Below are positions 1,988 to 32,431 of a stretch of DNA of 33,308 nucleotides, in pieces. The notes beneath the pieces were generated by a model that was not told the origin of the DNA, ran no database searches, and was given only the letters and a program-made list of their open reading frames with translations. Each line of letters starts with the position of its first letter. Position 1 is the first letter of the stretch. Location: assembly GCA_937919685.1 (NCBI GenBank), contig CALFOM010000254.1:1-33308 (forward strand), given 5' to 3'. Source of the stretch: an uncultured Phycisphaera sp. Lineage in GTDB: Bacteria; Planctomycetota; Phycisphaerae; Phycisphaerales; SM1A02. The position numbers and the translations under genes were made by a program.

Positions 1988-2497
1988 TCAGGATTTTGGT
2001 TTCGAAGTTGAATCGGTCTTCCAGAAGATCCGAACCCGCTTCTTGCCGAACTGGAGAGCGCCTTTTAGGTCGGTGCCGAAGTACACGTCGATTCGGTGCT
2101 TCCATCGCTTATTCATCTTGTCGAGGACGAGATAAGGACCGGACTCCATGCCGTCCTCCTCGATCCAGACGTCGGTTCGGTGGTGCAGGCCCTCGTCGAG
2201 GAGATCGCGGCTCACCGCGATCGACTTCACCTTCGGGTTGAGTCGGTCGTTCCAAGCGGCGATGAACGGATCGCCGTCGGTCTCTTCGGGTCTGGAGCAG
2301 TAGGCGGTCGCGGTCACCCACATCGAGTGTCGATCACCATGCTCGGCGTGTTTTTCGATGGTTCGAGTGGCCGGGCCGGTGTTTGGATAATTCTCGTTGG
2401 CCGCCTCGGTCGATCCGGGGCTACCGAGGAAGATGAACCCGAGCACCACCAGAGTGACGATGACGGCGGACGAAATGGCGAGTGGAAGGTGTTTCAT
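1988..2497 (-). CDS. 3D (Asp-Asp-Asp) domain protein, secreted or membrane-anchored
   Basis: N-terminal hydrophobic anchor, then VTATAYCSRPEETDGDPFIAAWNDRLNPKVKSIAVSRDLL...GPYLVLDKMNKRWKHRIDVYFGTDLKGALQFGKKRVRI, resembling the 3D-domain fold. Confidence 0.75.
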   Translation of the reverse strand: MKHLPLAISSAVIVTLVVLGFIFLGSPGSTEAANENYPNTGPATRTIEKHAEHGDRHSMWVTATAYCSRPEETDGDPFIAAWNDRLNPKVKSIAVSRDLLDEGLHHRTDVWIEEDGMESGPYLVLDKMNKRWKHRIDVYFGTDLKGALQFGKKRVRIFWKTDSTSKPKS

Positions 2498-2528
2498 GGC
2501 TTCATGGCTTCATGGCTTCATGGCTTCA
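2493..2528. repeat. Tandem repeat (TTCATGGC)x4 plus partial unit, period 8
   Basis: ttcatggc ttcatggc ttcatggc ttcatggc ttca read directly. It contains the stop codon of the upstream ThuA gene and the start codon of the 3D gene. Confidence 0.95.
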
Positions 2529-3408
2529 AGACATCAACGGGCTTGTCGACGTTCGCCGGAAGGGGCGATCGCTTCTTGGCGGGGGTATTGACGATTCCCG
2601 ATGCCCACATGATGGCCCCGGTGAGGTGCTTCCGGAAGAGCGGCTCGGCGTACGACTCGTTGGTATGTCCACCACCCGTGTAGAACGCTCGCCCTCCATC
2701 GAAGTCGTGATACCAACTCGTGGGGTGGTCGCCGTTCATTCCACCGCCCTCATAACTGGTCTCGTCGAGACTCATCAGGACCGTGACGTTCGGTCGTGGG
2801 TTGTCGCGGTAGACGTACCACTCATCGGTTCGATCCCAGACGGGCGGGAGCATACTTGTCGCAGGGAACGTTCGGTCCTCGACGTTGATCTTCGCGGGCT
2901 GGATGCGTGGATGAGTCTTGAACCACGCGCCAACGAGTCGGCCGTACCAGGGCCAGTCGTATTCCGTGTCAGCGGCACTATGGACCCCGACGTACCCGCC
3001 GCCGTTGCGAATGAACGTCTCGAAGTGCTTCTGCTGAGCGTCATCGAGAACGTCGCCGGTGGTGTTCAAGAAGACCACGCAGGAGAGCGTGCTGAGCTCT
3101 TTCTCGTTGAAGCGCGCGGGGTCTTCGGTGGTCACGACGTCGAAACCATGTTCCTTCCCCAGTTCGACCATGGTCTTGATGCCGGTGGGGATCGAACCGT
3201 GTCGGAATCCGGCGGTCTTCGAAAAGACGAGCACCCGAGGTTGCTCGACGACTTTCCTCGGGGCCGAGGTCGGCTTCCGCGGGGGGGTCGATTGATCCTG
3301 TTCCACGGATTCGGCGAAGGCCAACAGCAAGGCCGCCGATGTGACGCACGCGAGGATTGGGGTGAGGACTCGCGACGCGCGACGTGCCCATGAGAGATTG
3401 ATATTCAT
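2518..3408 (-). CDS. ThuA-like domain protein (trehalose-utilisation / class I GATase-like fold), secreted
   Basis: From MNINLSWARRASRVLTP: signal-like N-terminus, then VLVFSKTAGFRHGSIPTGIKTMVELGKEHGFDVVTTEDP...GGGYVGVHSAADTEYDWPWYGRLVGAWFKTHP...GRAFYTGGGHTNESYAEPLFRKHLTGAIMWA. Confidence 0.9.
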   Translation of the reverse strand: MNINLSWARRASRVLTPILACVTSAALLLAFAESVEQDQSTPPRKPTSAPRKVVEQPRVLVFSKTAGFRHGSIPTGIKTMVELGKEHGFDVVTTEDPARFNEKELSTLSCVVFLNTTGDVLDDAQQKHFETFIRNGGGYVGVHSAADTEYDWPWYGRLVGAWFKTHPRIQPAKINVEDRTFPATSMLPPVWDRTDEWYVYRDNPRPNVTVLMSLDETSYEGGGMNGDHPTSWYHDFDGGRAFYTGGGHTNESYAEPLFRKHLTGAIMWASGIVNTPAKKRSPLPANVDKPVDVLKP

Positions 3409-3579
3409 GAGGTGGATGCTACTGGCTTGGTTCCCTTGGGCAAAGGGCGACTTCGATCTGTGGGGGGCCGTGTGACCTGGCCTGCATGGTCGCTGACCCA
3501 AAGGGGGGGAGACGAGGCTCTTGCCGCCGTCGGACGGTCTGCCGCCAGGAATTCGGGATCGAGGGTCTGAGAGAAAGAA

Positions 3580-3607
3580 TGACGCCTGGTGCGAGCACCA
3601 GGCGTCA
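3580..3607. other. Perfect 12-bp hairpin TGACGCCTGGTG-CGAG-CACCAGGCGTCA, possible terminator or regulatory element
   Basis: Inverted repeat read directly. No long T-run on either side. Confidence 0.6.
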
Positions 3608-3632
3608 CTGAGGAGAATCTCATCCAGAACGG

Positions 3633-3679
3633 ATGAAAATGCAGAACATGCAGATCATGCGCGGATCATGCGGATCATG
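3633..3679. repeat. Degenerate tandem repeat, period about 9 (CAGATCATG / CGGATCATG)
   Basis: ATGAAAATG CAGAACATG CAGATCATG CGCGGATCATG CGGATCATG. Confidence 0.75.
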
Positions 3680-3867
3680 CTTCTCCCGATTTCCCCGACT
3701 CTCTCGAACGGGATCTTGCGGCGACTCAGCTCATTGTCGATCTCTCTCTGGCTTCGCCAATGAGTCGAACCTTCCTGCCGCAAACACTCATGCGAGATTG
3801 GTGGAGACTCATCCGCGTTCCAGAGTGTTTTCTTGTTCTTTTTAGTTGGAGGGGCGTTTTTTGATGC

Positions 3868-3894
3868 GATACAGGCGATAGATGCAATACATGC
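3868..3894. repeat. Degenerate tandem repeat, period 9 (GATACAGGC / GATAGATGC / AATACATGC)
   Basis: Three consecutive diverged 9-mers read directly. Confidence 0.55.
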
Positions 3895-3995
3895 GCTTAA
3901 TAAGGTGGCGAAATCGCCGGCGTGATGGAGATACGCCCTCGCTCGCTCCTATGGTGGTGATCATGCGTCTCGGCCTGAAATTCGAGGGGTTCCGC

Positions 3996-4040
3996 CAAAG
4001 AAAAGCCCCCTTCCCCCGAGACGGGGTGAAGAGGGCTTGC
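3996..4040 (-). terminator. Rho-independent terminator downstream of tRNA-Ala
   Basis: Reverse strand: GCAAGCCCTCTTCACCCC-GTCTC-GGGGGAAGGGGGCTTTTCTTT, a GC-rich hairpin followed by a T-rich tail. Confidence 0.75.
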
Positions 4041-4047
4041 GGGCGAA

Positions 4048-4120
4048 TGGAGCCGATCGGGATCGAACCGACAACCTCCTCGATGCGACCGAGGCGCTCT
4101 CCCAATTGAGCTACGGCCCC
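4048..4120 (-). tRNA. tRNA-Ala (anticodon CGC)
   Basis: Reverse strand GGGGCCGTAGCTCAATTGGGAGAGCGCCTCGGTCGCATCGAGGAGGTTGTCGGTTCGATCCCGATCGGCTCCA. Acceptor GGGGCCG/CGGCTCC; anticodon stem CCTCG/CGAGG with loop GTCGCAT; CCA not encoded. Confidence 0.93.
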
Positions 4121-4264
4121 GCAGATTCCGACGGTGGTGGACGTCGGTGGGGCCGCAGTATATCCCGACCGCTACCTGCCATCCAGCCGCCGTCAACGAT
4201 CGGACTCATCCGAGATCCGCCCCAGACGGCCTTGGGCGGTATCTTTGGTCGAGGAGGCTCTTTC

Positions 4265-5224
4265 ATGTCCGCGTTCGTAACCCTGATCGTCTACAGCGGG
4301 ATCATCCTGGTCGTCTCCGTGCTTGGCGGGCTCGTTCCCGGTTGGCTCTCGCTGACGCACCGTCGGATGCAACTGGCCCTCTGTCTTGTCTCAGGCGTCA
4401 TGCTCGGCGTCGGGATGCTCCACATGCTCGGGCACGCCGCGGAAGCAGTGGTGCACGCGCATGGTTCGGGCCCCTCGATGCACGACGTGATGCTCGCCGC
4501 GGTCGCCGGCTTCCTCGCGATGTTCCTGCTCGAGCGGTTCTTCTGTTTTCATCATCACGAAACTCCCGACGAACAAGGGCATACCTGCGGCCACGATCAC
4601 GGATCGACGGCCGTCTGCGCTGAAGATGCACCCGTCACCGAACACCGCCTTGGTTGGATCGGGGCGCTCATCGGCCTGACGGTTCATACCCTTCTCGCCG
4701 GAATCGCCCTCGGGGCCGCCGTCGCGAGTGGAGAGGCACAACTTGCGACCCTCGGGCCGGCACCCGTTTCCGCGGACGGGATGTTCTTCGGCTTGCTGGG
4801 ATTCACCGTGTTTCTCGGAATCGTCCTGCACAAGCCCTTCGATGCCTTCACGATCGTGGCACTGATGCAGCGCTCCGGAAGAAGCCGAACCGCGATGCAT
4901 CTGGTCAACGTCGTCTTCGCGTTGATGATTCCGCTCGGCGTACTCCTCTTCCGGCTGGGGGCGGATCTCGCATCCGACGCCGAACTCTTCACGATCTATG
5001 CACTGGCGTTCAGCGCGGGCACCTTCATCTGTATTGCGGCGAGCGACGTCCTTCCTGAACTGCAGTTCCACAAACATGATCGAGTCGCGATGGCCTCGAT
5101 GCTCATCCTCGGGCTCGTCATCGCCTGGGGCAGTGGGCTCCTCGAAGAGGGGGGTCACGCGCACGATCACCTTCAATCTGAAGCCGACACCGACCTCCAA
5201 GGTCCCGAGCCGCCGAGCCAATAA
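4265..5224 (+). CDS. ZIP-family metal (zinc) transporter
   Basis: Multi-TM protein with MLGVGMLHMLGHAAEAV, a His-rich loop (CFHHHETPDEQGHTCGHDHGS), LTVHTLLAGIALGAAVASG, GIVLHKPFDAFTIVALM and FSAGTFICIAASDVLPE. Confidence 0.9.
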   Translation: MSAFVTLIVYSGIILVVSVLGGLVPGWLSLTHRRMQLALCLVSGVMLGVGMLHMLGHAAEAVVHAHGSGPSMHDVMLAAVAGFLAMFLLERFFCFHHHETPDEQGHTCGHDHGSTAVCAEDAPVTEHRLGWIGALIGLTVHTLLAGIALGAAVASGEAQLATLGPAPVSADGMFFGLLGFTVFLGIVLHKPFDAFTIVALMQRSGRSRTAMHLVNVVFALMIPLGVLLFRLGADLASDAELFTIYALAFSAGTFICIAASDVLPELQFHKHDRVAMASMLILGLVIAWGSGLLEEGGHAHDHLQSEADTDLQGPEPPSQ

Positions 5225-5420
5225 ACGATCGAAAAGCCACGTTTCGAAGCCGAGATCCTCAATTTTATTGGGTCAGTCGTAACATCGATTTGAGAAACAA
5301 AAAAAAGGGAGTTCTTTCAGTTGCGACGAGTTTCGAAGCCGTCTACCTTGAGCCCTCTTCGAAAAATCTGAGCGTTGAGTTGAGCGACCTTGGAGGAGAG
5401 TCGCCCGATTCAAACAAATT

Positions 5421-5462
5421 CGGCCTGCTGGACACAATTCAGCAGGTCGGGTTTTTCTTTTG
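5421..5462 (+). terminator. Rho-independent terminator
   Basis: CCTGCTG-gacacaatt-CAGCAGG followed by tcgggTTTTTCTTTT. Confidence 0.75.
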
Positions 5463-5608
5463 GGCAGTCTGCATCAGCCATCGATTCACTCCCGAATCGA
5501 ATCGAATCGAGCACTTGGATCAAATTTTAGTACTCCGGGTGGCATGATCGATGCCCGTCCTCGACGATCGGGCATCTTGCGATCGCGGCCGTGATACGCT
5601 TCCTCACC

Positions 5609-5791
5609 ATGAAATCTGAAAAAATCCTCGCCGAGCTGAACCGTATCCGGGCCGATCTGGACAAGGATCCATCCGACATCGAGTGGTTCACGCTCCACCA
5701 TGTCTTCTGCTTCATCAGTTATCAACAGGGGGCGTTCCAGCAATACCTGGATGAGGTCATCAAGCCCGGAGACGAGGTCCCAGAGGACTGA
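5609..5791 (+). CDS. Small hypothetical protein (60 aa)
   Basis: MKSEKILAELNRIRADLDKDPSDIEWFTLHHVFCFISYQQGAFQQYLDEVIKPGDEVPED. Balanced, protein-like composition between two other plus-strand genes. No family recognised. Confidence 0.5.
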   Translation: MKSEKILAELNRIRADLDKDPSDIEWFTLHHVFCFISYQQGAFQQYLDEVIKPGDEVPED

Positions 5792-6017
5792 GTTTCTCGT
5801 CCATCGGGCGGAAGGCCGGCCTGATTGGGCCCGGGTCCGGTGTCTCGGCGGGAGTTGGTCGTGTCCGGGTCTGGGACGGGCAGTCGCGGGACACCTGCCT
5901 TCAGATCGCGTCAGAGCGATGGCAAAGACAACCTTCCACGGCTCTTGGGCCAGGGTGAGGACAAGGGCTTTCGGTATCCTGTGGCGTCTCCCACGCATCT
6001 CCGGATTTCCATTTCCC

Positions 6018-8870: not shown

Positions 8871-8888
8871 GCGAGGGCAGAGGCGATC

Positions 8889-9095: not shown

Positions 9096-9242
9096 GTCGG
9101 CCCGAGGGTTTTGGTTCCAGGCGTCCGTAGCGGCGGCGCACGGTGGTGTGACGGTTTCGGTTTTAGGAATACCGAAAGAGATCTCGCGACGGGAGGCCGT
9201 CTCTGGACGCCCGAATCGGATGCACATGAGACAGTAGCCACG

Positions 9243-9284
9243 GGCTCATGGCTCATGGCTCATGGCTCGCGGCTCATGGCTCGG
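9243..9284. repeat. Tandem repeat (GGCTCAT)x6, period 7, with two variant units
   Basis: GGCTCAT GGCTCAT GGCTCAT GGCTCGC GGCTCAT GGCTCGG. Confidence 0.95.
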
Positions 9285-9300
9285 CATCGCGCCGTTGGTT

Positions 9301-9705
9301 TCAGCTGACGCGGGAACCCGGCTTGACGGGCTTGTCGATGGTCACCATGACCACGTCTCGCTCATCGGGCCCTGGTTTTCCGTCGCCCGAGGTCTCGTCC
9401 GAATCGGCGATGTCCTTCAGGTTGCTGGCGGCGAGGATCATGCCTTGGCTGATCTCGCCACGAAGTTTCCGGGGCTCGAGATTCGCCACGATCACGACCT
9501 GCTTGCCGACGAGCTCTTCCGGCTCGTACCACGCCTTCACGCCCGCGCAGACCTGGCGTCCCTCTGCGGTGCCATCATCGAGCGTGACCTTCAGAAGCTT
9601 GTCCGCATTGGGGTGGGCTTCGCAGGCGGTCACCGTAGCGACGCGGAGGTCGAGCTTTGAGAACAGCTCGAAGTCGATGTTCGGGAGTGGTTCGATGTTG
9701 CTCAC
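9301..9705 (-). CDS. tRNA-binding domain protein (MetG beta-chain / CsaA-like OB fold)
   Basis: IDFELFSKLDLRVATVTACEAHPNADKLLKVTLDDGTAEGRQVCAGVKAWYEPEELVGKQVVIVANLEPRKLRGEISQGMILAAS, the canonical tRNA_bind domain. Confidence 0.93.
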   Translation of the reverse strand: MSNIEPLPNIDFELFSKLDLRVATVTACEAHPNADKLLKVTLDDGTAEGRQVCAGVKAWYEPEELVGKQVVIVANLEPRKLRGEISQGMILAASNLKDIADSDETSGDGKPGPDERDVVMVTIDKPVKPGSRVS

Positions 9706-15334: not shown

Positions 15335-16216
15335 GTGAAGGTTGCTGCTGGGGATGAAGGGCACCCGCCACGTTGCCTCCGCATCTATCCTGTGGATGTG
15401 GAAGACGCGCCGGATCATCGATCGAAGCTACCGACCGACCTCGTCACGTGGACGACGCTGCTCGGGCACTGGACGGACCTCGTCAAGGCGGGCGAAGGAC
15501 TTCGCCGCGCTGCGGATTCGAACCAGGACGCGGCCAGATGGCGTGACTCGATTCCCGAGGTGATCCGCCTGCAGTCAATCACCTTCGCGCTGGGGGATCT
15601 GGATCTTCTCGACGCGTCTGATCGCGGCCTTGCCCGAGATCGTGCCCGGATCGGGATCGACGCCGCGTCTCGCATCCTGGAGTCGGTCTGGGTGGGCACG
15701 CCGATTCCCGACGCCTTGACGGAGATCGCCCAGGACGCGTCGCATTCGATTGAAACGGCGGTCTATTCGGGGCTGCGATGGTCTCGCTGGGTCGGTTCGG
15801 ATCTGCTGGAGATGCCCCAGGTCGATTTCGACGCGGCTGGAATCCGGGGGACGCTGGCCTGTGCTCAGCCAGGGACCATCCTCCAATCCGGGTCGCCGGT
15901 CGCCTGGTGGACCGAACGGGAGCCGCCCGGAGAACTCGGGGGCTCGGGTTTCGAGGTCGTTCCCGGGCCGCCGGTGCAGGTCTACCGCCGAATCGAGGAC
16001 CACGGCCAAAGGGTCTGCGACTTCGTCGCGTCGATTTTTGAGAGGTGCGAAGGGCTTCCGCTGTTGGTACCGATCTGTCTCGCGGGCGATCCGATCGGTC
16101 GGTTCACGGTCGACGCGGTGGCGTGGCGCGAACTGAACCGGGCGGCTTTCGAGTCGGCCACCGCGGACGCCGTGCTCGAATTCGACGTCGGCGTAGAACC
16201 CCCGGTTCTAGGTTGA
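15335..16216 (+). CDS. Hypothetical protein
   Basis: 293-aa ORF with protein-like composition, divergent from purF and convergent with the MBL gene. Its stop codon lies in the repeat array at 16211. No family recognised. Confidence 0.65.
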   Translation: MKVAAGDEGHPPRCLRIYPVDVEDAPDHRSKLPTDLVTWTTLLGHWTDLVKAGEGLRRAADSNQDAARWRDSIPEVIRLQSITFALGDLDLLDASDRGLARDRARIGIDAASRILESVWVGTPIPDALTEIAQDASHSIETAVYSGLRWSRWVGSDLLEMPQVDFDAAGIRGTLACAQPGTILQSGSPVAWWTEREPPGELGGSGFEVVPGPPVQVYRRIEDHGQRVCDFVASIFERCEGLPLLVPICLAGDPIGRFTVDAVAWRELNRAAFESATADAVLEFDVGVEPPVLG

Positions 16217-16242
16217 TCAGGTTGATCAGGTTGATCAGGTTG
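16211..16242. repeat. Tandem repeat (GGTTGATCA)x3 plus partial GGTTG, period 9
   Basis: Three identical 9-mers read directly. The plus-strand gene stops at TGA 16214-16216 and the minus-strand gene stops at TCA (TGA) 16235-16237. Confidence 0.97.
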
Positions 16243-17155
16243 GGATGCCGGGCATCAGATCGGGATAGGGGAGCAGGTCTGGGGTGCCAGGATCGGTCGC
16301 CTTGAAGACCCTGATCGGATCGAGGGGAATATTCTGGTCCGCGATGTGGAGCCGCTCCGCGAGTTCCGCGTCCTGCTCGTTCCAGAGTTGACGAACGATC
16401 GCGGGATCGTTGCATTCGCGAGAAAGGTGGAGGAGCACGATCGCGTCGAGTCGCGAGCGATCCGTCGTCGAGCGGACGGCATCCATCGCCTCGCGATTGG
16501 AGAGGTGGCCATGGCCTCCGGTGATCCTCTCCTTGAGGAAGGGGGGGCGTTGCGATGCCGATTGGAGTCCCGGGTCGTAGTTTGATTCCACACCGATCAG
16601 ATTGCATCCGGCAAGCAGACCTCGCACCTGCGGGGTCACGCGGCCAATGTCGGTCGCCCATCCGATCGTCGTCGGAATGGGTCCGGTGCGGAGTCCAAAA
16701 CGAAGAACGGCCGATCCGTGGTCGTCATGCGGTCCGAGCGTGATGGTCACGTCCAGAAGTTCCTTCACCACGGGCACGCTTCTTCCGCCATCGGAGAGCG
16801 GGAGGAGTTGTCTTCCCGGGACGCCATGTCGGGCGAGGGCGGCATGATGACTCGGGGCCGCGAACACCGGCCAGCCTCGAGCCTCGAGAGAACGACGCCA
16901 GGTGGGCCGAAGGTGATCCGTGTCGGGGTGGGTGACGACGACGGCTCGAACATGATCGAGGTCGATGTCGGGGGCGTGGGCATCGAGACGTCGGGCGAGG
17001 GTTCGGGGGCCGATTCCCAGATCGATGCAGACATGGATCGGGCGCGGGTCGCCAGATCGCCGGAGGGTCAGAATGGAGAGATTCCCCGCAGATCCGCTGG
17101 CGATCACGCGCAGATCGACCGCGATCACGGGAGGTGGCATCCCGGTCCCGTTCAC
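16235..17155 (-). CDS. MBL-fold metallo-hydrolase (YycJ-like)
   Basis: GTG start (VNGTGMPPPVIAVDLRVIASGSAGNLSILT...), CIDLGIGPRTLARRL, VVVTHPDTDHLRP, GWATDIGRVT, ESNYDPGL, and GHGHLSNREAMDAV. Confidence 0.85.
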   Translation of the reverse strand: MNGTGMPPPVIAVDLRVIASGSAGNLSILTLRRSGDPRPIHVCIDLGIGPRTLARRLDAHAPDIDLDHVRAVVVTHPDTDHLRPTWRRSLEARGWPVFAAPSHHAALARHGVPGRQLLPLSDGGRSVPVVKELLDVTITLGPHDDHGSAVLRFGLRTGPIPTTIGWATDIGRVTPQVRGLLAGCNLIGVESNYDPGLQSASQRPPFLKERITGGHGHLSNREAMDAVRSTTDRSRLDAIVLLHLSRECNDPAIVRQLWNEQDAELAERLHIADQNIPLDPIRVFKATDPGTPDLLPYPDLMPGIPT

Positions 17156-17982: not shown

Positions 17983-18045
17983 GAATGAACCGGACTCTCG
18001 AAAAGAGTTCTCCAAATGGGAGATGGAACCGAATACGGTACACGG

Positions 18046-18840
18046 ATGAACCATCCGTTGCAGCCCCCAGATCAGCTCGATTTCGCGTCTGGAAGCCCCC
18101 CGGCGGATTGGCTGGAGATTCGCCGGCTCGGTCCCATCGACTATCAGAGCGGACTGGCATTGCAGAGAGAACTGCATGCACGGGTCCTCGAAGCACGTGC
18201 GGAGGGCACCCGACGCGGGTTTGTGTTGCTCCTCGAACACGATCCACCCGTGGTGACGGTCTCACGGAGGCCTGGAGCGACCGAGAACGTGCTGGCATCT
18301 CCAGAAGCGCTTGCCGCCCACGGTGTCCAACGCCACGAGACGGATCGGGGTGGGGATGTGACCTATCACGGTCCAGGCCAGCTCGTGGTGTATTCCATGG
18401 TCGATCTCAATGATCTCGGCGTCCGGATCCATGGTTGGATCAGACTTCTTGAACAAGTGTTGATCGAGGCGATCGGGATGTGCGGGTTGGTGGCGGGCCG
18501 CGATCCGGGAGCGACTGGTGTCTGGGTTGGTCGGCAGGAAGAGGATCAGGATGGCGAGGGCGGTCGGAAGATCGGGGCGATCGGCGTTCGGGTATCTCGC
18601 TGGGCGACGATGCACGGCCTCGCACTCAATGTCGATCCCGATCTATCGCACTTCGACCTTATCGTGCCGTGTGGACTCGCCGGTCGGCCGGTCACCAGCA
18701 TCGCGCAGGAATGCCGAGAAGCCGGGGTACCCTCGCCGACATTCGATTCGGTCCGAGAGGTGGTCGCGAATCGACTGATCGCCCGCCTTGAGGATCCTTC
18801 CGACTTTCGAGATCGCGCAGCGTCGGATGTAGAGGGCTGA
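18046..18840 (+). CDS. lipB: Octanoyltransferase LipB
   Basis: LGPIDYQSGLALQRELHARV...GFVLLLEHDPPVVTVSRR...RGGDVTYHGPGQLVVYSMVDLNDLGVRIHGWIRLLEQVLIEAI...GATGVWVG...RKIGAIGVRVSRWATMHGLALNVDPDLSHFDLIVPCGL. Confidence 0.96.
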   Translation: MNHPLQPPDQLDFASGSPPADWLEIRRLGPIDYQSGLALQRELHARVLEARAEGTRRGFVLLLEHDPPVVTVSRRPGATENVLASPEALAAHGVQRHETDRGGDVTYHGPGQLVVYSMVDLNDLGVRIHGWIRLLEQVLIEAIGMCGLVAGRDPGATGVWVGRQEEDQDGEGGRKIGAIGVRVSRWATMHGLALNVDPDLSHFDLIVPCGLAGRPVTSIAQECREAGVPSPTFDSVREVVANRLIARLEDPSDFRDRAASDVEG

Positions 18841-18843
18841 AGC

Positions 18844-18883
18844 GATCAACCCCGATCAACCCCGATCAACCCTGATCAATTTA
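18844..18883. repeat. Tandem repeat (GATCAACCCC)x4 with a diverged last unit, period 10
   Basis: GATCAACCCC GATCAACCCC GATCAACCCT GATCAATTTA. The last unit carries the stop codon (TTA = TAA on the minus strand) of the OmpH-like gene, and the lipB stop is 3 bp before the array. Confidence 0.93.
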
Positions 18884-19600
18884 GAGGCCGAGTTCCGCTG
18901 AGACGGCCTCGGTGATGTCGATCGCGTCCGGGTAGCGAAGGAAGAGTCGCCGTCGCACCTGCTCGCTGGCCAGTTCCATGCTGTCGGCTTTGAACGGATC
19001 GCTGGTTGGTACGAAGCGAGTCACGATGTCGATGTTTCGCTTCTCCGCGACGATGTCCACCGCTTCGATCAGCTCCCGATATGCAACTTCGATCTGCTCC
19101 GCACCGAGTCGCTGCTGGATCGCCATTGTTCCCTTTTGCCAGGTCTGGTACTCCTGCATCATCGCCTGGAATCGGGCCTGTACTTCGGGGAACTCCGGAC
19201 TCTCCGGGGTGACGTCGACATGCTCTTCTTGAAAGTCCTTGAATTGCGCCTCGAACGTCGCGTTCTGCGTTTCGGCCGTCGCCTGAATCTCCTTGCGGTC
19301 CTCGCCGAAACGATCGCTCTCCATCAGCAGGCCAAGAAGTTTGGGCACGTTGACGGCGCCGATGCTCCAGGCTCGCGCCGTCGGGTCGTCGCCGAAGGCG
19401 AGGTCGCCGTCGTCGTCCCGCAGGGTGAGGTCACCCGACTTGCCTCGGAGGATCAGTTCGTCGGCGGGTCCGAGGGTCTCCTTCGCAGGTTCGGCGTCGT
19501 CGCCGATCGCCACCGATTCTCGGCCACCGAAATCGGCGAGCATCGCGACGGTGAGAAGGGCGAGCAGGGAATGGACGACGAGTCTCTCGTATCGGTGCAT
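18881..19600 (-). CDS. OmpH/Skp-like periplasmic chaperone family protein
   Basis: Signal-like N-terminus MHRYERLVVHSLLALLTVAMLADFG, IGAVNVPKLLGLLMESDRFGEDRKEIQA, a coiled-coil central region, and EQIEVAYRELIEAVDIVAEKRNIDIVTRF. Confidence 0.75.
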   Translation of the reverse strand: MHRYERLVVHSLLALLTVAMLADFGGRESVAIGDDAEPAKETLGPADELILRGKSGDLTLRDDDGDLAFGDDPTARAWSIGAVNVPKLLGLLMESDRFGEDRKEIQATAETQNATFEAQFKDFQEEHVDVTPESPEFPEVQARFQAMMQEYQTWQKGTMAIQQRLGAEQIEVAYRELIEAVDIVAEKRNIDIVTRFVPTSDPFKADSMELASEQVRRRLFLRYPDAIDITEAVSAELGL

Positions 19601-22856: not shown

Positions 22857-23666
22857 CTACCCGTCGATCGTGGGTGCCGGCGCTTTTCCGGATTCGGTCG
22901 AGGCCGGGATCGGATTCGGCGTCTTGGCCTCGCCTTCTTCAGGGATCGGTCGAGCCACTTTGACCAGAGGCCGTCGAAGCGGCCCTTTGGATGTCCGGAA
23001 CTCGACGATGCCGCCATCGTCGCCCAGAATGACTTGCTCGATCACGGGGGTCTGGCGTGCCACCAGCGGCTCCATCACGAGCCGATCATCTTCGAGCAGA
23101 TACCAATGGCCCCGCTGCCCAGCCACTTCGGCGATCGACGTGCTCTCCGGTGCGATCCACTGGTAACTCTGGTCGACCCGGAACATGATCGTTCCTCCTG
23201 GGCCTTCCCAGTGACCAAGCAGGCGATCTTCGCTGATCCTTGGAGGCGCGACGGCCTTCGAGAATGTCCTGTCCTCACCGGCGAGGGATGCCATCAGCAG
23301 GTCGTCATGGAGCGAGAGGGCGACCCGCTGCCGAACCTTGCGGGGGAGGGTGTACGCCTCAAGCCAGAACACCGCATGGTTCTGTCGATGCCAGCGACCG
23401 ATTTCCGATGGTGGTTCGAACCGATCGTGGTTGCGCCATTGGCGGTAGCGGCCGTCTTGGGAGATCTCAAGAAGCCCTGTGGGGGTCACCCACCAACCGG
23501 TGATCGAGCGCGGTTTCTCCGGATCCATCTGAAGAGTGGTCACGATCACCGGCGTCGCCACCGCATCGTCGAAATCCAGGGGCGGTGCTGCTTGCAGCAG
23601 GAAGTTGACCAGGGAGAGGCTCGCGATCAAGTTGAACAAGTTGAGCATGTTGAACATGTTGGACAT
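22857..23666 (-). CDS. Hypothetical secreted protein with repeat-encoded N-terminus
   Basis: MSNMFNMLNLFNLIASLSLVNFLLQAAPPLDFDD..., a signal-like N-terminus followed by GWWVTPTGLLEISQDGRYRQW and HWEGPGGTIMFRVDQSYQWI (two similar beta-rich segments). No family recognised. Confidence 0.7.
   Translation of the reverse strand: MSNMFNMLNLFNLIASLSLVNFLLQAAPPLDFDDAVATPVIVTTLQMDPEKPRSITGWWVTPTGLLEISQDGRYRQWRNHDRFEPPSEIGRWHRQNHAVFWLEAYTLPRKVRQRVALSLHDDLLMASLAGEDRTFSKAVAPPRISEDRLLGHWEGPGGTIMFRVDQSYQWIAPESTSIAEVAGQRGHWYLLEDDRLVMEPLVARQTPVIEQVILGDDGGIVEFRTSKGPLRRPLVKVARPIPEEGEAKTPNPIPASTESGKAPAPTIDG
23625..23666. repeat. Tandem repeat, period 9 (GTTGAACAT and variants)
   Basis: GATCAA GTTGAACAA GTTGAGCAT GTTGAACAT GTTGGACAT. 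The last unit carries the start codon of the minus-strand CDS. Confidence 0.9.
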
Positions 23667-23828
23667 GCGGAATCACCTTAGGAGGGGGATCTGGATGCGG
23701 GTCACCGGAGGTGGCTCGGCGATACGACGACCTTGAGACTCAAAATGGTATGCGCTCCCCACTGCGGCCGAAGGAGAAACTCGTCGCATCATCTCGCGCG
23801 GTTCCGAGAGGGCAGCGTTTCATAGGCG

Positions 23829-24554: not shown

Positions 24555-24555
24555 C

Positions 24556-24625
24556 ATGAAGATCCATGAAGATCCATGAATATCCATGAATATCCATGAA
24601 TATCCATGAAGATCCATGAAGATCA
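24556..24625. repeat. Tandem repeat (GATCCATGAA / TATCCATGAA), period 10, six full units plus flanking partial units
   Basis: ATGAA GATCCATGAA GATCCATGAA TATCCATGAA TATCCATGAA TATCCATGAA GATCCATGAA GATCATTGAT. Confidence 0.97.
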
Positions 24626-24663: not shown

Positions 24664-25098
24664 TCAGGCGGCGGTTCGTTCGACTTCGGCGGAAAAGGCG
24701 GACTGTCGTCCACGTCGCTTCGGAATCGAGCTTTCGACCTGGCGGACATGAGTCTCGGCAAAGAAGTGGAGATCAAGTCCGAAGGCGGCGAGCTGGATGA
24801 ACCAGACAACGGCGGTCGTGAAGACCATTGGCACCTGAGCGCCGCCGACCTCGATGCCGAGGAATACGGCTCCGAGGAACTGGGCACCGAATGCCATCAA
24901 GGCCAGAATCAGACCAAACATGAGGTCGATCGACTTGGGAAGACTCAAGGCTGCGGAGAGGCCGAGCAGGCCCACGCCGAAAATCGATCCGACGACTCCG
25001 TACGCGACTCCGAACGGCCAGAATGCCGTCAGCAGGATCAGGGCAAGAATCGGGGAGACTCGAAACTTCAAACTGACTTCGGGAATCTGAGCGTGCAC
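24664..25098 (-). CDS. Hypothetical integral membrane protein
   Basis: Four hydrophobic segments (VSPILALILLTAFWPFGVAYGVVGSIFGVGLLGLSAAL; LMFGLILALMAFGAQFLGAVFLGI; VPMVFTTAVVWFIQLAAFGLDL). Start taken as GTG 25098. The ORF is open to 25167, so the start is uncertain. Confidence 0.6.
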   Translation of the reverse strand: MHAQIPEVSLKFRVSPILALILLTAFWPFGVAYGVVGSIFGVGLLGLSAALSLPKSIDLMFGLILALMAFGAQFLGAVFLGIEVGGAQVPMVFTTAVVWFIQLAAFGLDLHFFAETHVRQVESSIPKRRGRQSAFSAEVERTAA

Positions 25099-25185: not shown

Positions 25186-25209
25186 CAGGCGGAAATTCAG
25201 GCGGAAATT
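25186..25209. repeat. 12-bp perfect tandem duplication CAGGCGGAAATT x2
   Basis: CAGGCGGAAATT CAGGCGGAAATT in the rimO 3' intergenic region. An imperfect ATGGCCC/ATGGCC/ATGGCTC run lies nearby at 25137-25156. Confidence 0.85.
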
Positions 25210-25440
25210 GTGAGGGGCGCCTCTGGGCGGGGTTCAAGCTAAAAAAAGGTGTTTGAATCCTGCATTTATGGGAAGGCGATCTGATCTTCGAATGCCGATC
25301 GAGCAAGGCTCGATCCGGAGCGTGAACAACCGCTCGCGACTCGTAATCCGACAAGGTTAGCGTTTTCATCGGTTCGAAGAAAGCACTCGTAGATCAAATT
25401 GTGAAAAAAAACACGAACATCTCCCCGTTCGCGGTTTTTC

Positions 25441-27003: not shown

Positions 27004-27032
27004 GTGGACATACTACGAGGTTGCCGACCTGC

Positions 27033-28442
27033 TCATGGGTTTTTTCGATAGAGGCCGCGATCGGTGATCACCTTCAGCACGCCTTCCGGGAGTAATGCCG
27101 AGACGTCCTCTCCATCGGCCAGACGTCTCCTGATCTCGGTGGAACTCACCCCCTCGGCGGCCAGATCGAGCGTCCAGGTCGACCAGCGGCTTGCGAGGTT
27201 CGAGTCGAAGTGCGCCCGATATTTGGCCGCGAGCGAGGTTCGAGTCTCGGGAGGCCTCGGCATCACGACCGGCGGCGCGAGGGCGATGATCTTCTGCCAG
27301 TCCCGCCAACGGTCGAAATCGAGGGCCTGGTCGCTTCCGATCAGGAGTCGAAGCTGAGGTTGCTGGCGGGCCACGTTCTCGTCTCGACCGGCCTTCTCGA
27401 GGAGTTCGCGTTGAATCGCCTCTAGCGTGTCGATGGTGAAACTCGGTCCTTCTCGATCGACTTCGCGCCGATCGATCCGGGCGGTGATCACGGGAGATCG
27501 GGGATCTGGTTTTCGATGTTCGATCGCCGCCTCGAGCATTCTGATTCGATCTGCCGGATCGGCCGGGGGCGTCTCCTGCTTGAGCGGGTTGACGCGTGCC
27601 GGAACGAAGACCACCTCATCGCAGCCGAGTCTCGCTGCCGCCTCGAATGGAAGGGTCAGATGTCCCCGATGCGGTGGATCGAAGGAGCCACCGAAGATCA
27701 GAATCGACCCGGCGCCAGGTTTGCGAACGGATCGGATGCGAACGTCGCCGATCTTCGGGCCGTCAAAGGGAGGAAGGACCAGTTCGCGAAGGGAATCGCC
27801 CAGGGCGAGGAGTGCGACTCGCGTTTGTCGCCCGAGTGCTCGAAGTCGCTTGAACAGGGCGGGGCGTTGGAACAACTCGATCGCAACCACGACGATTCGC
27901 GTCCGTCCGAGGTGATCGACGAAGCGATCGAGTGCCGCAGGAACCGCTTCTTCCATCGGATCTCCGACGACCCGGATGATGCCCCAGTCCCATCCGCGGC
28001 TGTCGGCCAGTTCAGCGAAGTGCACCGACTCGAGATCGACGATGGAGGCGCCGGTCGCTCGTCCGAGCGCGTGTTTCGCCTCGGAACTCGCGACGACTCT
28101 GCCGGTGGTGGTGACGCGACCTCGACGGCTGCCGGGTAGATCGATGCGGCAGGCGGCGGGCGGCACCGTGACCCGACCTCGCTGATCGACGACCTCGTCG
28201 ACGACCACGATGCTCCCGGAGGCCAGGTCCGGTTCGAGCCCCCCGGCGATCCCGACGAGGATCACTGGGCCACTGTGCTCACTGTGACCGTCCGCCCATC
28301 GACGAACGCCTTCTCGGCCAGGCCCGCACACGTGCAGACGATCCGCCGGAATTCCGGTGGATGCGAGAATCTTCCGCTCGTGTACCAGCGGGGTCAGAAA
28401 TATCAGATTGGTTGTCGAGACCCGTGGCTCAGGTGTCGTCAT
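27033..28442 (-). CDS. nadD: Fusion: nucleoside-phosphorylase-superfamily domain (HpnG/MTAN-like) + nicotinate-nucleotide adenylyltransferase (NadD)
   Basis: N-terminus ILVGIAGGLEPDLASGSIVVVDEVVD...ASIVDLESVHFAELADSRGWDWGIIRVVGDP (phosphorylase-like). C-terminus ILIFGGSFDPPHRGHLTLPFEAAARLGCDEVVFVPARVNPLKQ...LLIGSDQALDFDRWRDWQKI...GVSSTEIRRRLADGEDVSALLPEGVLKVITDRGLY (NadD). One uninterrupted ORF. Confidence 0.88.
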   Translation of the reverse strand: MTTPEPRVSTTNLIFLTPLVHERKILASTGIPADRLHVCGPGREGVRRWADGHSEHSGPVILVGIAGGLEPDLASGSIVVVDEVVDQRGRVTVPPAACRIDLPGSRRGRVTTTGRVVASSEAKHALGRATGASIVDLESVHFAELADSRGWDWGIIRVVGDPMEEAVPAALDRFVDHLGRTRIVVVAIELFQRPALFKRLRALGRQTRVALLALGDSLRELVLPPFDGPKIGDVRIRSVRKPGAGSILIFGGSFDPPHRGHLTLPFEAAARLGCDEVVFVPARVNPLKQETPPADPADRIRMLEAAIEHRKPDPRSPVITARIDRREVDREGPSFTIDTLEAIQRELLEKAGRDENVARQQPQLRLLIGSDQALDFDRWRDWQKIIALAPPVVMPRPPETRTSLAAKYRAHFDSNLASRWSTWTLDLAAEGVSSTEIRRRLADGEDVSALLPEGVLKVITDRGLYRKNP

Positions 28443-28487
28443 GCGCAGAGGCTACCCGCCCCGAGGTCATTCGTCTTGAAAGACGGT

Positions 28488-28844
28488 TCAGTCCCAGTCG
28501 TCGATGGTGGGAACGTCGGCGAGTTGCTGGCTCGGCGCGGGAACGCTGAAGGCCGCGATCAACTGATATTCGCTCTCGAAGCGGCCGACCAGCGTGCCGT
28601 TCTCGTCGAGAACTTCGTACCCCGGACCGAAGGGGCCAGAGATCACTCGGATCGAAAGCGTTTGGCCACTCAAGGTTCCGAGATCGACGGGATCTGACGT
28701 CCGGTCGAAGCCACCCTCGACCGTGGCCAGGGTGGAACTCGGGTTGACGGTCCAGAAGACCCCCAAGGCCAACGCGACGACGCCGAGGCCGAGCATGACC
28801 TTCTGGAATCGAGCATCAGCCGTCATGAAATCGAGGTTCTTCAT
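28488..28844 (-). CDS. Hypothetical small membrane-anchored protein
   Basis: MKNLDFMTADARFQKVMLGLGVVALALGVFWTVNPSS..., one TM helix followed by a compact domain. No family recognised. Confidence 0.6.
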   Translation of the reverse strand: MKNLDFMTADARFQKVMLGLGVVALALGVFWTVNPSSTLATVEGGFDRTSDPVDLGTLSGQTLSIRVISGPFGPGYEVLDENGTLVGRFESEYQLIAAFSVPAPSQQLADVPTIDDWD

Positions 28845-29041
28845 ACGAGCAGCATCGACGTTCCAACGTCTTGCGATCAGTCATCGACGGGTTTTCCTCT
28901 GTTTCGGGAGTCATGAAAGTCGGTCTGGAAGGCCTGCCAGCAGTTCGAGCGCGGGCCGGGAATCAGGGGCACTGGTTGCCGTGGTGGAAATCCTCGCTAC
29001 CATGCCCCGCACGCTGGGTTTTCCCGCCCGGCCACTTGACT

Positions 29042-29116
29042 GGCCCCATCGTCTAGTCAGGTCCAGGACACCAGGTTTTCATCCTGGGAACAGGGGTTCG
29101 AATCCCCTTGGGGTCA
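29042..29116 (+). tRNA. tRNA-Glu (anticodon TTC)
   Basis: GGCCCCATCGTCTAGTCAGGTCCAGGACACCAGGTTTTCATCCTGGGAACAGGGGTTCGAATCCCCTTGGGGTCA. Anticodon stem CCAGG/CCTGG, T-arm GGGGTTCGAATCCCC, acceptor GGCCCCA/TGGGGTC. Confidence 0.95.
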
Positions 29117-29204
29117 TTGCGTAAGTCCTTGTCAGACAAGGGCTTGCCAGGTCAGGAAATGCTCTGGAACGGTCGCCAAAACGCCGTGCCAAGCACACGA
29201 AAGA

Positions 29205-29240
29205 AACCCCGCCTAGCGATAGGCGGGGTTTTCTTTTTTT
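29205..29240 (+). terminator. Rho-independent terminator downstream of tRNA-Glu
   Basis: AACCCCGCCTA-GCGA-TAGGCGGGGTT followed by TTCTTTTTTT. Confidence 0.9.
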
Positions 29241-29388
29241 GCGCGATGGTGTTCGACGTCGGAGACGCCTGAGAAACCAGGCCTCTGAATTCCGGTCTCG
29301 TTTGATTTTGGAAGGGTGTCTCGTCGGTTTGGATTTCGGCGATGATCTGCCCGGTGGCTCGACTCGATCCCCGGGAAGGGCATGGCAC

Positions 29389-30264
29389 ATGGAGCGCCTC
29401 GTGACTCGATCAACCTGCTCGCTCACGCCGTCCGTTTCGGCGGTTCGACGCTCCTGTTTTGCGTCGTCGTGCCGTCGTGGCGTTCTGCTGTTCAGCATCA
29501 TGTCGGCGCCGTTGCTCCACGCGGGGTGTCAGTCCGTCGCGGGGACCGATCGGCGGCAGTTGAACACCTACTCGGTCGATCAGGAGATCACGCTTGGCAA
29601 CGAGGCGTACGCGGAGATGCAGGTTGGCGCCAAGGCGATCAAGTCCGGACGGGATTTCGAGATGGTGGTGCGGGTCGCGGACCGGATCGCGGCCGCGGCA
29701 GATCGACTGCATCCGGAGATCGCGAACCGTTTCGAATGGGAGGTCATCCTCATTGATGATGACGAGATCGTGAATGCCTGGGCGCTGCCCGGGGGGAAGA
29801 TGGCGGTTTACACCGGCATCCTTCCGTTCACGAAGACGGAGGACGGACTGGCCGCGGTGATGGGGCATGAAGCGGCTCATGCGATTGCGCGGCATGGTGG
29901 CGAGAACATGACGAGGCAAGGATTGGTGAGCCTCCTTGCCATCGGCGCCGCGGTCATGGTCGATCCTGAGGATCGAGTGATCGTGGCAGCTGCAGCGGGT
30001 GCGTATGGTCTGCTCGGCGAGCCGGCATTCAGCCGGGCGCAGGAATCAGAGGCCGATGAACTCGGCCTTTTTCTCACCGCGGATGCGGGGTATGACCCGC
30101 GAGAATCCGTCGCACTCTGGGAGCGGATGGGTGCCCGGGGCGGCGAGCCGCTCGAATTCCTTTCGACTCATCCCAACAGCGAGACGCGAATTCGCGACCT
30201 CGAGGCGTTGATGCCGGTTGCGATCGAGATTCAGCGAAGAAGGCTTCTCGACCGGATCGATTGA
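29389..30264 (+). CDS. M48-family metalloprotease, probable lipoprotein
   Basis: Lipobox-like LLHAGC, VNAWALPGGKMAVYTGILPFTKTEDGLAAVMGHEAAHAIARHGGE (HExxH), RAQESEADELGLFLTADAGYDPRESVALWERMG, STHPNSETRIRDLEALMP. Confidence 0.93.
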   Translation: MERLVTRSTCSLTPSVSAVRRSCFASSCRRGVLLFSIMSAPLLHAGCQSVAGTDRRQLNTYSVDQEITLGNEAYAEMQVGAKAIKSGRDFEMVVRVADRIAAAADRLHPEIANRFEWEVILIDDDEIVNAWALPGGKMAVYTGILPFTKTEDGLAAVMGHEAAHAIARHGGENMTRQGLVSLLAIGAAVMVDPEDRVIVAAAAGAYGLLGEPAFSRAQESEADELGLFLTADAGYDPRESVALWERMGARGGEPLEFLSTHPNSETRIRDLEALMPVAIEIQRRRLLDRID

Positions 30265-30410
30265 GCGTCCGAGGGGCCGGCGGTTCGTCCGTTTCGTAAT
30301 GATTCGAACGCCGAATCCGGACCATATTTTCACCCCGATCTCCGCGGACCTGTCATGATGCCTGCCAAGAAGCTCGGCGGTTGCTCAATGGTGAACGCCG
30401 CGTGAGTCCA

Positions 30411-30427
30411 CCGTTCCGTTCCGTTCC
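30411..30427. repeat. Pentanucleotide repeat (CCGTT)x3 plus CC immediately upstream of a start codon
   Basis: CCGTT CCGTT CCGTT CC AT ATG (CDS start at 30430). Confidence 0.85.
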
Positions 30428-30429
30428 AT

Positions 30430-32349
30430 ATGGCCTCCTCTTTGAGTCGTATTTTGACCTCGAAAGACCCCATCTCACCCGTCCGGATTCCCAATCCCGG
30501 CCGCAATCGCTTTCAGCGGTTCGTGTTCGAGATGCTGCGTCCGGCGATCGATTCCGGTCTGGGGCTGAAGCAACTCAACAAGATCTACCACGAGCGGGTT
30601 CTTGCGACCGACGAGTCGCTGCCCGTCGGCGAACGCTTTCTCCGGGGGTTCAATGCTGGCTACCTCACCAGCGACGAGGAACTGGCCCGGATTCCGAAGG
30701 ATGGCCCGTTGGTGGTGGTCGCGAACCACGCGTTTGGCGGGCTCGATGCGATGGTCCTCGACGACATAGTCACGAAGGTCCGGCCGGACGTTCGATTCAT
30801 CGCCAATTCGATTCTCGCCGCAGTCCCCGCGATCGGCGACCGGATCTTTCCGGTCGATCCGTTCGGCGGTCGTGACGCGGCACGCCGGAATGCGGGGTCG
30901 ATCCGTCGTGCGAAGGATTGGATCGAGAATGGTGGAAGTCTGGCGGTTTTTCCAGCTGGCGAGGTCGCACACTCTGACTGGCGGCGCTTTTCGGTCACCG
31001 ATTCGCCTTGGAATCCGATCATCGGTCGACTGATCAAGTCGACGGGCGCGTCGGTCACTCCAGTCTTTTTCGAAGGTCGCAATTCATGGGTCTTCCAGGC
31101 TGCCGGGCTGATTCATCCCAATCTGCGAGCGGTCCTGCTGGGACGGGAATTGTTGAAGGTCCAGGGGCGTCGAGTCAGGGTTGCGATCGGGACGCCGCTT
31201 CGGGTCGACCAACTCGACCGGTTTGCTGATCCGAAGGACCTGATCGAATTCCTGCGCCTTCGAACCTTTGTGTTGCGCTCCCGGCTCGAGCGGGAGAGTT
31301 TTGAGGACAGTCCGCGTCTCCATTCAATCGTCCGCTCGATTCCAGCTCGAAGTCGGACGCCGGAGCCGGTTCGAATGGAACCCGTGGCCACCAAACCCGC
31401 GGATGCACCTTCCGATCTGGCGGCCGAGATCCTGGGGCTTCCACCCGAGCAGATTCTGGTGAAGCGAGGTGATCAACGGGTCATCTACGCGGAGGCGGAT
31501 CAGATCCCCATGGTTCTTCAGGAACTGGGTCGACTTCGCGAACTCAGTTTCCGCGCGGTGGGTGAAGGCACCGGGAACGCGTTGGACATCGATGAATACG
31601 ATCAAAGCTACCTGCATCTCGTCCTCTGGGATGAGAAGTCAAGCGGGGTCATCGGCGCCTATCGACTGGGTCGGACGGACCGGCTGATCGAAACTCACGG
31701 GATCAACGGGCTCTATACCCGCACCCTCTTCCGTTACGACGAGGATCTCATCAAGGAACTCGGACCGTCGCTCGAGATGGGGCGTTCGTTTGTCCACCCG
31801 GATTATCAGCGTCGAGTGGAGCCGTTGATGCTGCTCTGGAAGGGGATCGCTCGTTACTCGGGCAAGTTCCCGAAGTACCGCAGGCTCTTCGGTCCGGTTT
31901 CGATCAGTGCGGATTATCACGCGACGTCAACGCGGCTTCTCCTTTCGTTCCTGAATGCGACCGAACGGATCTCGAGGCTGGAGCGGCTCGTGAAGCCTCG
32001 CAATCCTTTCCGAATCAACACGCCACGTGACTGGGATCCGACGTCGCTTCGTTCGGTCCGCAGTCTCGACGACATCGATGAACTCGTCCTCGAGATCGAG
32101 CGGGGCGAACGTTCGGTCCCCGTGCTGGTCAGGCAGTATTTGAAGCTCAATGCGGTCTTTCTCGGATTCAATGTCGACCCCGACTTCAGTAACGTCGTCG
32201 ACGGGCTGGTTCTGGTCGATCTGCTGCGGATGAACCGGCGCCTCCTTCGGTTCTACATGGGCGAGGAACTCGTGGATCCTTTCCTGAAGATCCACGCCAA
32301 AGCGGATGCCGACGTCCAGGCGGAGCCTGCGAGTCAGCCGATCTTCTGA
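30430..32349 (+). CDS. Two-domain acyltransferase: PlsC-like N-terminus + GNAT/hemolysin-like (OlsB-type) C-terminus, resembling OlsF
   Basis: PlsC-like GPLVVVANHAFGGLDAMVL...GSLAVFPAGEVAHSDW...TPVFFEGRNSWVFQAAGLIHPNLRAVLLGRELL. C-terminal ELSFRAVGEGTGNALDIDEYDQSYLHLVLWDEKSSGVIGAYRLG...SLEMGRSFVHPDYQRRVEPLMLLWKGIARY...LFGPVSISADY. Confidence 0.85.
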   Translation: MASSLSRILTSKDPISPVRIPNPGRNRFQRFVFEMLRPAIDSGLGLKQLNKIYHERVLATDESLPVGERFLRGFNAGYLTSDEELARIPKDGPLVVVANHAFGGLDAMVLDDIVTKVRPDVRFIANSILAAVPAIGDRIFPVDPFGGRDAARRNAGSIRRAKDWIENGGSLAVFPAGEVAHSDWRRFSVTDSPWNPIIGRLIKSTGASVTPVFFEGRNSWVFQAAGLIHPNLRAVLLGRELLKVQGRRVRVAIGTPLRVDQLDRFADPKDLIEFLRLRTFVLRSRLERESFEDSPRLHSIVRSIPARSRTPEPVRMEPVATKPADAPSDLAAEILGLPPEQILVKRGDQRVIYAEADQIPMVLQELGRLRELSFRAVGEGTGNALDIDEYDQSYLHLVLWDEKSSGVIGAYRLGRTDRLIETHGINGLYTRTLFRYDEDLIKELGPSLEMGRSFVHPDYQRRVEPLMLLWKGIARYSGKFPKYRRLFGPVSISADYHATSTRLLLSFLNATERISRLERLVKPRNPFRINTPRDWDPTSLRSVRSLDDIDELVLEIERGERSVPVLVRQYLKLNAVFLGFNVDPDFSNVVDGLVLVDLLRMNRRLLRFYMGEELVDPFLKIHAKADADVQAEPASQPIF

Positions 32350-32402
32350 TCGACGCGCCGTTGAAACAACACGGCCGCATCATTCGATCTCCCATGATCT
32401 AT

Positions 32403-32431
32403 TCTAAATGCTCTAAATGCTCCAATGCTCC
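32403..32431. repeat. Short tandem repeat TCTAAATGC, period 9 (two perfect units plus a shortened unit)
   Basis: TCTAAATGC TCTAAATGC TCCAATGC TCC. Confidence 0.75.

What the first reader, a model, noticed from the sequence alone, without database searches (positions are those of the whole stretch)
2493..32431. Dispersed family of unrelated-unit mini-tandem arrays located at gene boundaries
About ten short arrays occur in 33 kb: 2493 (TTCATGGC, period 8), 3633 (CAGATCATG, 9), 3868 (GATAGATGC, 9), 9243 (GGCTCAT, 7), 16211 (GGTTGATCA, 9), 18844 (GATCAACCCC, 10), 23625 (GTTGAACAT, 9), 24556 (GATCCATGAA, 10), 25186 (CAGGCGGAAATT, 12) and 32403 (TCTAAATGC, 9). The unit differs at each locus, so this is not a single dispersed repeat family. 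Period (mostly 7-10 bp), copy number (2-6), frequent GATC/CATG/TTGA cores and position (between genes, at stop codons or at start codons) recur. I saw none inside the conserved housekeeping ORFs. This suggests either a lineage-specific local duplication process tolerated only between genes, or a functional boundary element whose architecture is conserved rather than its sequence. A period near one helical turn would place the motifs on the same DNA face.
Basis: partly seen in the sequence, partly recalled or inferred. Interest (0 to 1): 0.75.

Follow-up and report, generated by a model that had tools for sequence, protein, structure and literature searches.

The report
Local mini-tandem arrays sharing a TCAT core
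This planctomycete keeps turning short 8-10 letter words of DNA, very often ones containing TCAT/ATGA, into small tandem arrays that survive mainly just after genes end; it looks like an unusually active local copying error, stronger here than in its relatives, rather than a built-in gene-boundary device.

Summary
The arrays are real and not chance: six of the ten listed reach a score (>=14) never seen in simulated windows; the weakest (3868, parts of 3633) are marginal. In 719 kb of this genome the density is 9.2 arrays/100 kb, against 3.2 in a same-genus genome, 2.5 in a same-family one and 0.75 in diverse bacteria. They lie between genes, within 100 bp of a stop codon twice as often as expected, and are scarce between divergent genes. 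Inside genes only periods divisible by three occur. At six of eight window arrays tested, the unit stands once (or 1.5 times) at the same place in sister species, so each array was born locally and recently. This refutes a conserved boundary element. 26 of 48 contain ATGA/TCAT (4-5.5 expected), and TCAT arrays of period 8, 9 and 10 recur genome-wide in several species of the genus, while commoner tetramers do not. I could not show selection on that core, nor a strand preference. Best reading: raised, sequence-biased tandem duplication (slippage type), filtered by selection. Polymorphic intergenic tandem repeats are already reported for lake Planctomycetota; the TCAT bias is the new part, its cause unknown.

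The parts
2493..2528 (.). Array TTCATGGC x4.5 (p8); holds the stop of the ThuA-like gene 2518-3408(-) and the start of 1988-2497(-)
   Evidence: single TTCATGG at the same place in G003 and G006
3635..3680 (.). Imperfect 9-bp array (ATGCAGATC/GCGGATCAT) between the ThuA-like gene and tRNA-Ala
   Evidence: 82-88% matches; gap-free pieces score 9-11, weak
3864..3895 (.). Weak 9-bp array (GATAGATGC-like), same intergene
   Evidence: only, 73% matches; not significant by the gap-free scorer
9243..9282 (.). Array GGCTCAT x5.7 (p7) between convergent genes, 32 bp from the stop of 9301-9705(-)
   Evidence: G003 has only GGCTCATGGCTCGAGGCTC here
16210..16242 (.). Array AGGTTGATC x3.7 (p9) spanning the stop codons of convergent genes 15398-16216(+) and 16235-17155(-)
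   Evidence: single TTGATCAGTTG in G007, TGATCA in G006 and G005
18843..18879 (.). Array CGATCAACCC x3.7 (p10) filling the gap between the stops of the LplA/B-type gene 18016-18840(+) and the OmpH-like gene 18881-19600(-)
   Evidence: one related copy CGATCGACCC in G007
23628..23667 (.). In-frame 9-bp array GTTGAACAT x4 at the start of ORF 22857-23666(-)
   Evidence: single GTTGAACATG in G007 and G006
24555..24624 (.). Array CATGAAGATC x7 (p10), 39 bp from the stop of 24664-25098(-), next to a GC-rich inverted repeat
   Evidence: single CATGAAAATC in G007
25186..25209 (.). Two perfect 12-bp copies CAGGCGGAAATT
   Evidence: one similar copy in G007; near chance level
32403..32431 (.). Array TCTAAATGC x3 (p9) between 30430-32349(+) and 32465-33301(+)
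   Evidence: no counterpart in G003, G006 or G007; near chance level

Best explanation
These are young minisatellites (long-unit simple sequence repeats). In this genus, and most strongly in this species, a stretch of 7-12 bp (mode 9-10) of ordinary local sequence is tandemly duplicated, then expands and contracts, most likely by misalignment of the nascent strand during replication or gap repair. Words containing TCAT/ATGA, in either orientation, are duplicated or expanded preferentially. Selection then removes arrays that break reading frames or promoters, so survivors sit after stop codons, between convergent or codirectional genes, or inside genes only when the period is divisible by three. 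Shown: local recent origin from one pre-existing unit, the lineage-specific rate, the TCAT/ATGA bias, the frame rule, the placement near stops. Inferred: slippage as the physical step, absence of function, and that the TCAT bias is mutational rather than selected.
For: Own genome 66 arrays (score >=14) in 719 kb, 9.2/100 kb; G006 (same genus) 3.2, G016 (same family) 2.5, other planctomycetes 2.2, 68 diverse bacterial loci 0.75. None at score >=12 in three shuffles of 463 kb. Intergenic density per kb is about 17 times the coding density, while coding density equals that of relatives. All 13 coding arrays of period >=7 are 9 or 12; 24 of 48 intergenic ones are not divisible by three. Orthologous sites in G003/G006/G007 carry the unit once or 1.5 times for six window arrays, likewise three further own arrays and one G006 array seen from the other side. 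One array is shared by own and G006 with different copy number and unit variants. Within 100 bp of a stop: 14 of 27 against 22% of random intergenic points, P=6e-4; divergent gaps 2 of 27 against 29%, P=0.016; starts not enriched. ATGA/TCAT in 26 of 48 units against 5.5 (GC-matched, maximum 11 in 300 draws) and 4.2 (local flank, maximum 10). Genome-wide hits with four TCAT: period 9: 68, period 10: 28, period 8: 11 in own; fewer in G003, G005, G006, G007; nearly none outside the family. The commoner tetramer CTTC at period 10: 0 in own. 19 of 86 non-masked contig ends have an array within 100 bp against 1.6% of interior positions, so arrays longer than the assembly word probably break contigs.
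Against: The TCAT/ATGA bias is not predicted by plain slippage, and I found no physical reason for it: units do not fold better than shuffled ones, and it is not a stop-codon effect, since it holds far from stops (14 of 30) as well as near (12 of 18). Partial pre-existing second copies are only slightly commoner than chance and rest on two loci. No altered repair gene was found; only polA and Y1 transposase were looked at.
Confidence: 0.66

Rival explanations
1. Arrays are multi-copy binding sites for a genus-specific DNA-binding protein that reads TCAT once per 8-10 bp; the spacer is free, so units look different. Arrays near gene 3' ends would act in termination, insulation or nucleoid folding.
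For: The TCAT core recurs at periods 8, 9 and 10 with different spacers; some arrays keep TCAT while spacers differ (G006:C19, G000:C18); placement near stops and away from divergent promoters.
Against: Within arrays found without regard to TCAT, the core is not significantly less variable than the spacer: 25/461 against 45/603, P=0.21, similar. Orthologous boundaries lack arrays. Orientation relative to transcription is 14:11. About half of the units lack TCAT.
Confidence: 0.15
2. A functional gene-boundary element whose architecture, not sequence, is conserved.
For: About half of the placed arrays lie within 100 bp of a stop; the intergene next to tRNA-Ala holds arrays of different units in own and in G003.
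Against: At the eight window boundaries compared, the sister species show no array of comparable length. Intergenic arrays are 3 to 10 times rarer in close relatives with the same gene order. Periods 8-10 do not keep one helical face.
Confidence: 0.05
3. Sequence-specific amplification: an enzyme (nickase, primase, transposase of IS200/605 or RAYT type) acts at TCAT and makes 8-10 bp duplications, as in target-site duplication or flap mis-processing.
For: The strong TCAT/ATGA bias, present in the single-copy relative at 2493, 9243 and 24555; genus-restricted distribution.
Against: Y1 transposase has 0-1 copy in the genus and does not track array counts: G007 has many TCAT arrays and no match. 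Orientation is mixed within contigs, 9 same against 11 opposite, which disfavours a leading/lagging-strand primer model. No enzyme identified.
Confidence: 0.12
4. Assembly artefact of a metagenome-assembled genome.
For: Many arrays sit at contig ends and two contigs share a 55-base array overlap.
Against: All ten window arrays lie inside one contig with syntenic flanks; independent assemblies of sister species show the same TCAT type and one orthologous array. The contig-end excess is the expected effect of real arrays on short-read assembly.
Confidence: 0.02

Closest known systems
Intergenic tandem repeats behind structural variants of lake Planctomycetota (PMC9426551)
   Same: Same phylum; [quoted passage not shown] slippage proposed
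   Different: That study reports polymorphism, not unit sequence, birth from local words or a shared TCAT core; whether its organisms belong to this genus was not tested
Tandem repeats of archaeal Borg elements (PMC9879509)
   Same: Independent local origin, rapid turnover, unit virtually unique per locus, divisible by three inside ORFs, composition-biased units, flanking partial repeats, replicon-specific
   Different: Borg units are longer (18-21 nt in the examples read), perfect and A-biased, on an extrachromosomal element; here units are 7-12 bp, imperfect, chromosomal and TCAT-biased
GGGAATC heptamers of Xanthomonas and GGGGA(C/T)T of Nostoc (PMC4692102)
   Same: Intergenic, scarce in coding regions and between divergent ORFs, often near stop codons, length variable between relatives
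   Different: One fixed unit per genome able to form G-quadruplexes; the majority lie between the same genes in two Xanthomonas species, unlike here
TAACTGA direct repeats of marine Beggiatoaceae (PMC4679880)
   Same: Short intergenic tandem units, genome-wide, patchy among relatives
   Different: One unit, just upstream of start codons; here variable units near stops, not starts
Long-unit simple sequence repeats in prokaryotes (survey PMC4060949) and VNTR loci used in MLVA typing
   Same: Tandem repeats of 6-11 bp, over-represented between genes in a few genomes
   Different: Generally normally represented; no shared core in otherwise different units is described in what I read

Membership tests
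Long-unit simple sequence repeats / minisatellites (VNTR type) | Head-to-tail copies of a short unit beyond chance | tested here: met
Long-unit simple sequence repeats / minisatellites (VNTR type) | Copy number differs between related genomes at the same locus | tested here: met
   Single against multiple copies at six window loci; L002:11507 against G006 L100:2468
Long-unit simple sequence repeats / minisatellites (VNTR type) | Copy-number polymorphism within a population | not testable with these tools
   No reads available; contig breaks at arrays are only suggestive
Borg-type tandem repeats | Unit lengths in ORFs divisible by three | tested here: met
   13 of 13 coding arrays of period >=7 are 9 or 12
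Borg-type tandem repeats | Perfect units without SNPs | tested here: not met
   Many arrays carry variant units, e.g. 24555-24624
Dispersed repeat family (REP, IS-derived, transposed satellite) | Same sequence at many loci with shared flanks | tested here: not met
   Units differ in the spacer; at six loci the unit derives from the local ancestral word
Conserved gene-boundary element | Array present at orthologous boundaries | tested here: not met
TCAT-binding protein array | Core more conserved than spacer | tested here: inconclusive
   5.4% against 7.5% variable, P=0.21; limited power

The most novel reading that the evidence does not exclude
The genus carries a factor that specifically duplicates or expands 8-10 bp segments containing TCAT/ATGA, so that minisatellites are born from local sequence at a motif: a sequence-specific source of tandem repeats in bacteria, or else a periodic TCAT-reading chromosome protein that selects them.
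Probability: 0.25. Interest if true: 0.75.

Novelty: new variant of a known kind. Interest (0 to 1): 0.45.

Why it matters
How tandem arrays are born, as opposed to how they expand, is hard to see because the starting sequence is usually lost. Here sister species keep the single-copy starting word at the same gene boundary, and half of the words share one tetramer. That makes the birth step testable: which words get duplicated, and by what. The arrays also explain part of the fragmentation of these genomes and would serve as strain markers.

Tried and rejected
Hairpin-stabilised slippage: units fold no better than shuffled units and less well than random intergenic words. Stop/start overlap (ATGA) or RNA-level role: sense-strand orientation 14 ATGA to 11 TCAT. 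Replication-strand (primase start) model: mixed orientation within contigs. Pol I 5'-exonuclease loss: the domain is present in own and in every relative at least 90% complete that was searched; the own gene seems split only because its halves lie on two contigs. RAYT/Y1 transposase: 0-1 copies in the genus, not correlated with array counts. Selection on the core: not significant. The built-in reversed control TACT is unfair, because TACT is 5.5 times rarer than TCAT between genes; CTTC and TCGA were used instead. Rfam found no RNA explaining arrays. Six own contigs are all N and slightly deflate the densities; one search leaves them out. My gene caller is home-made, so coding/intergenic assignment of single arrays can err.
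Full report
Observation. With a simple gap-free score, six exceed anything in 40 simulated windows, and nine arrays in the window score >=12 where simulation gives 0.02-0.08. The arrays at 3633 and 3868 are weak; 25186 and 32403 are borderline. The array at 23628-23667 is in frame inside the start of ORF 22857-23666, not between genes.

Scale. The window is one whole contig of a 3.45 Mb, 254-contig draft genome, apparently metagenome-assembled; the nearest named LepA relatives are Phycisphaerae/Phycisphaerales. I read 719 kb of real sequence of it and comparable samples of relatives. Arrays scoring >=14: own 9.2/100 kb, G006 (same genus) 3.2, G016 (same family) 2.5, other planctomycetes 2.2, 68 loci of diverse bacteria 0.75. 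G030 (6.3/100 kb) is high too, but on 80 kb and with five period-8 arrays of another, GC-rich type. Intergenic density at score >=16 falls from 0.29/kb in own to 0.10 and 0.03/kb in G006 and G016, while coding density is the same, 0.015-0.017/kb. The excess is therefore a lineage property of intergenic DNA.

Placement. Of 27 intergenic arrays with a gene called on both sides, 14 lie within 100 bp of a stop codon (22% expected, P=6e-4) and 2 lie between divergent genes (29% expected, P=0.016); starts show no attraction. In genes every array of period >=7 is 9 or 12 (13 of 13), between genes half are not divisible by three. This is the signature of a process acting everywhere and filtered by selection on frames and promoters.

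Origin. Gene order around the window is conserved in G003, G006 and G007, at about 70-95% protein identity for most genes. At six of eight arrays compared, the unit stands once or 1.5 times at the same spot in at least one sister: TTCATGG, GGCTCATGGCTC, TTGATCAGTTG, CGATCGACCC, GTTGAACATG, CATGAAAATC; a seventh (25186) has one similar copy and the eighth (32403) none. Conversely G003 and G006 have arrays where this genome has none. One array is shared with G006 but with different copy number and variant units. Arrays are thus local, recent and turn over.

Shared core. Counting each unit as a circle, 26 of 48 contain ATGA/TCAT, against 5.5 for GC-matched intergenic words and 4.2 for words from the array's own flanks; the maxima of 300 draws are 11 and 10. 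CATG rises with it; GATC and TTGA do not stand out after GC matching. Genome-wide, four TCAT at spacing 9 occur 68 times in own, 31 in G007, 17 in G005, 15 in G006, 7 in G003, 0-5 in other members of the family and almost never elsewhere in the order (overlapping hits of one array are counted apart and some lie in genes). Spacing 10 gives 28 and spacing 8 gives 11 in own. CTTC, commoner than TCAT between genes, gives 0 in own at spacing 10, and TCGA one palindromic place.

Why TCAT? The core is not significantly better conserved than the spacer (5.4% against 7.5% variable, P=0.21; one search likewise); it has no preferred strand relative to transcription (14:11) or within contigs (9:11); it occurs near and far from stops; the units do not fold better than shuffled ones. 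It is already in the single-copy word of a sister at 2493, 9243 and 24555. The bias therefore most likely acts when an array is born or first expands. Its cause is open. polA and Y1-transposase searches gave no candidate.

Assembly. 19 of 86 real contig ends of this genome have an array within 100 bp, against 1.6% of interior positions, and the start of contig 246 shares exactly 55 bases of array with contig 68. Arrays longer than the assembly word probably break contigs, so the longest arrays are under-counted.

Known background. Intergenic tandem repeats associated with structural variants were reported for lake Planctomycetota (PMC9426551). Borg elements show the closest behaviour: independent recent origin, frame rule in ORFs, composition bias, flanking partial repeats (PMC9879509). 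Xanthomonas heptamers share the avoidance of divergent gaps and the closeness to stops (PMC4692102). None of these, in what I could read, describes different units sharing one tetramer.

Verdict. Real, lineage-specific, locally born minisatellites with an unexplained TCAT/ATGA bias; not a conserved boundary element.

Noticed in passing
L077:10383-10937 (-) (G003, between ileS and the tRNA-binding-domain gene): A sister species carries an extra ORF here made of two similar halves, with LSQVAGG near the C-terminus; from memory it resembles a RiPP precursor with a nitrile-hydratase-like leader. No counterpart lies in the corresponding gap of the window.
   Followed up: partly
L019:11013-12788 (G000:C18): Six different arrays of periods 8-12 in 1.8 kb near a contig end, the densest cluster seen.
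   Followed up: no
L002:11230-12404 and L100:2468-2790: A region with four arrays in own and two in G006, including the only array found at an orthologous place in both.
   Followed up: partly
G000:C151:6727, G000:C199:5718, G005:C54:7995, G007:C80:38735: The same ten-base unit TCATGCTTGA forms arrays at two places in own and in two sister species; whether these loci are orthologous was not tested.
   Followed up: no
window:3408-4048 and L077:16417-16469: The same intergene next to tRNA-Ala holds arrays of different units in own and in G003.
   Followed up: partly
G000:C166:13359-13856 and G000:C129:387-1553: polA seems split between two contigs (519-aa open frame each, about 1010 aa in sisters), probably an assembly break.
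   Followed up: partly
L016:11148-11251: TPP riboswitch (RF00059, 58 bits) on another contig of the same genome.
   Followed up: no
L011, L014, L018, L035, L036, L142: Six short contigs of the genome are delivered entirely as N.
   Followed up: yes
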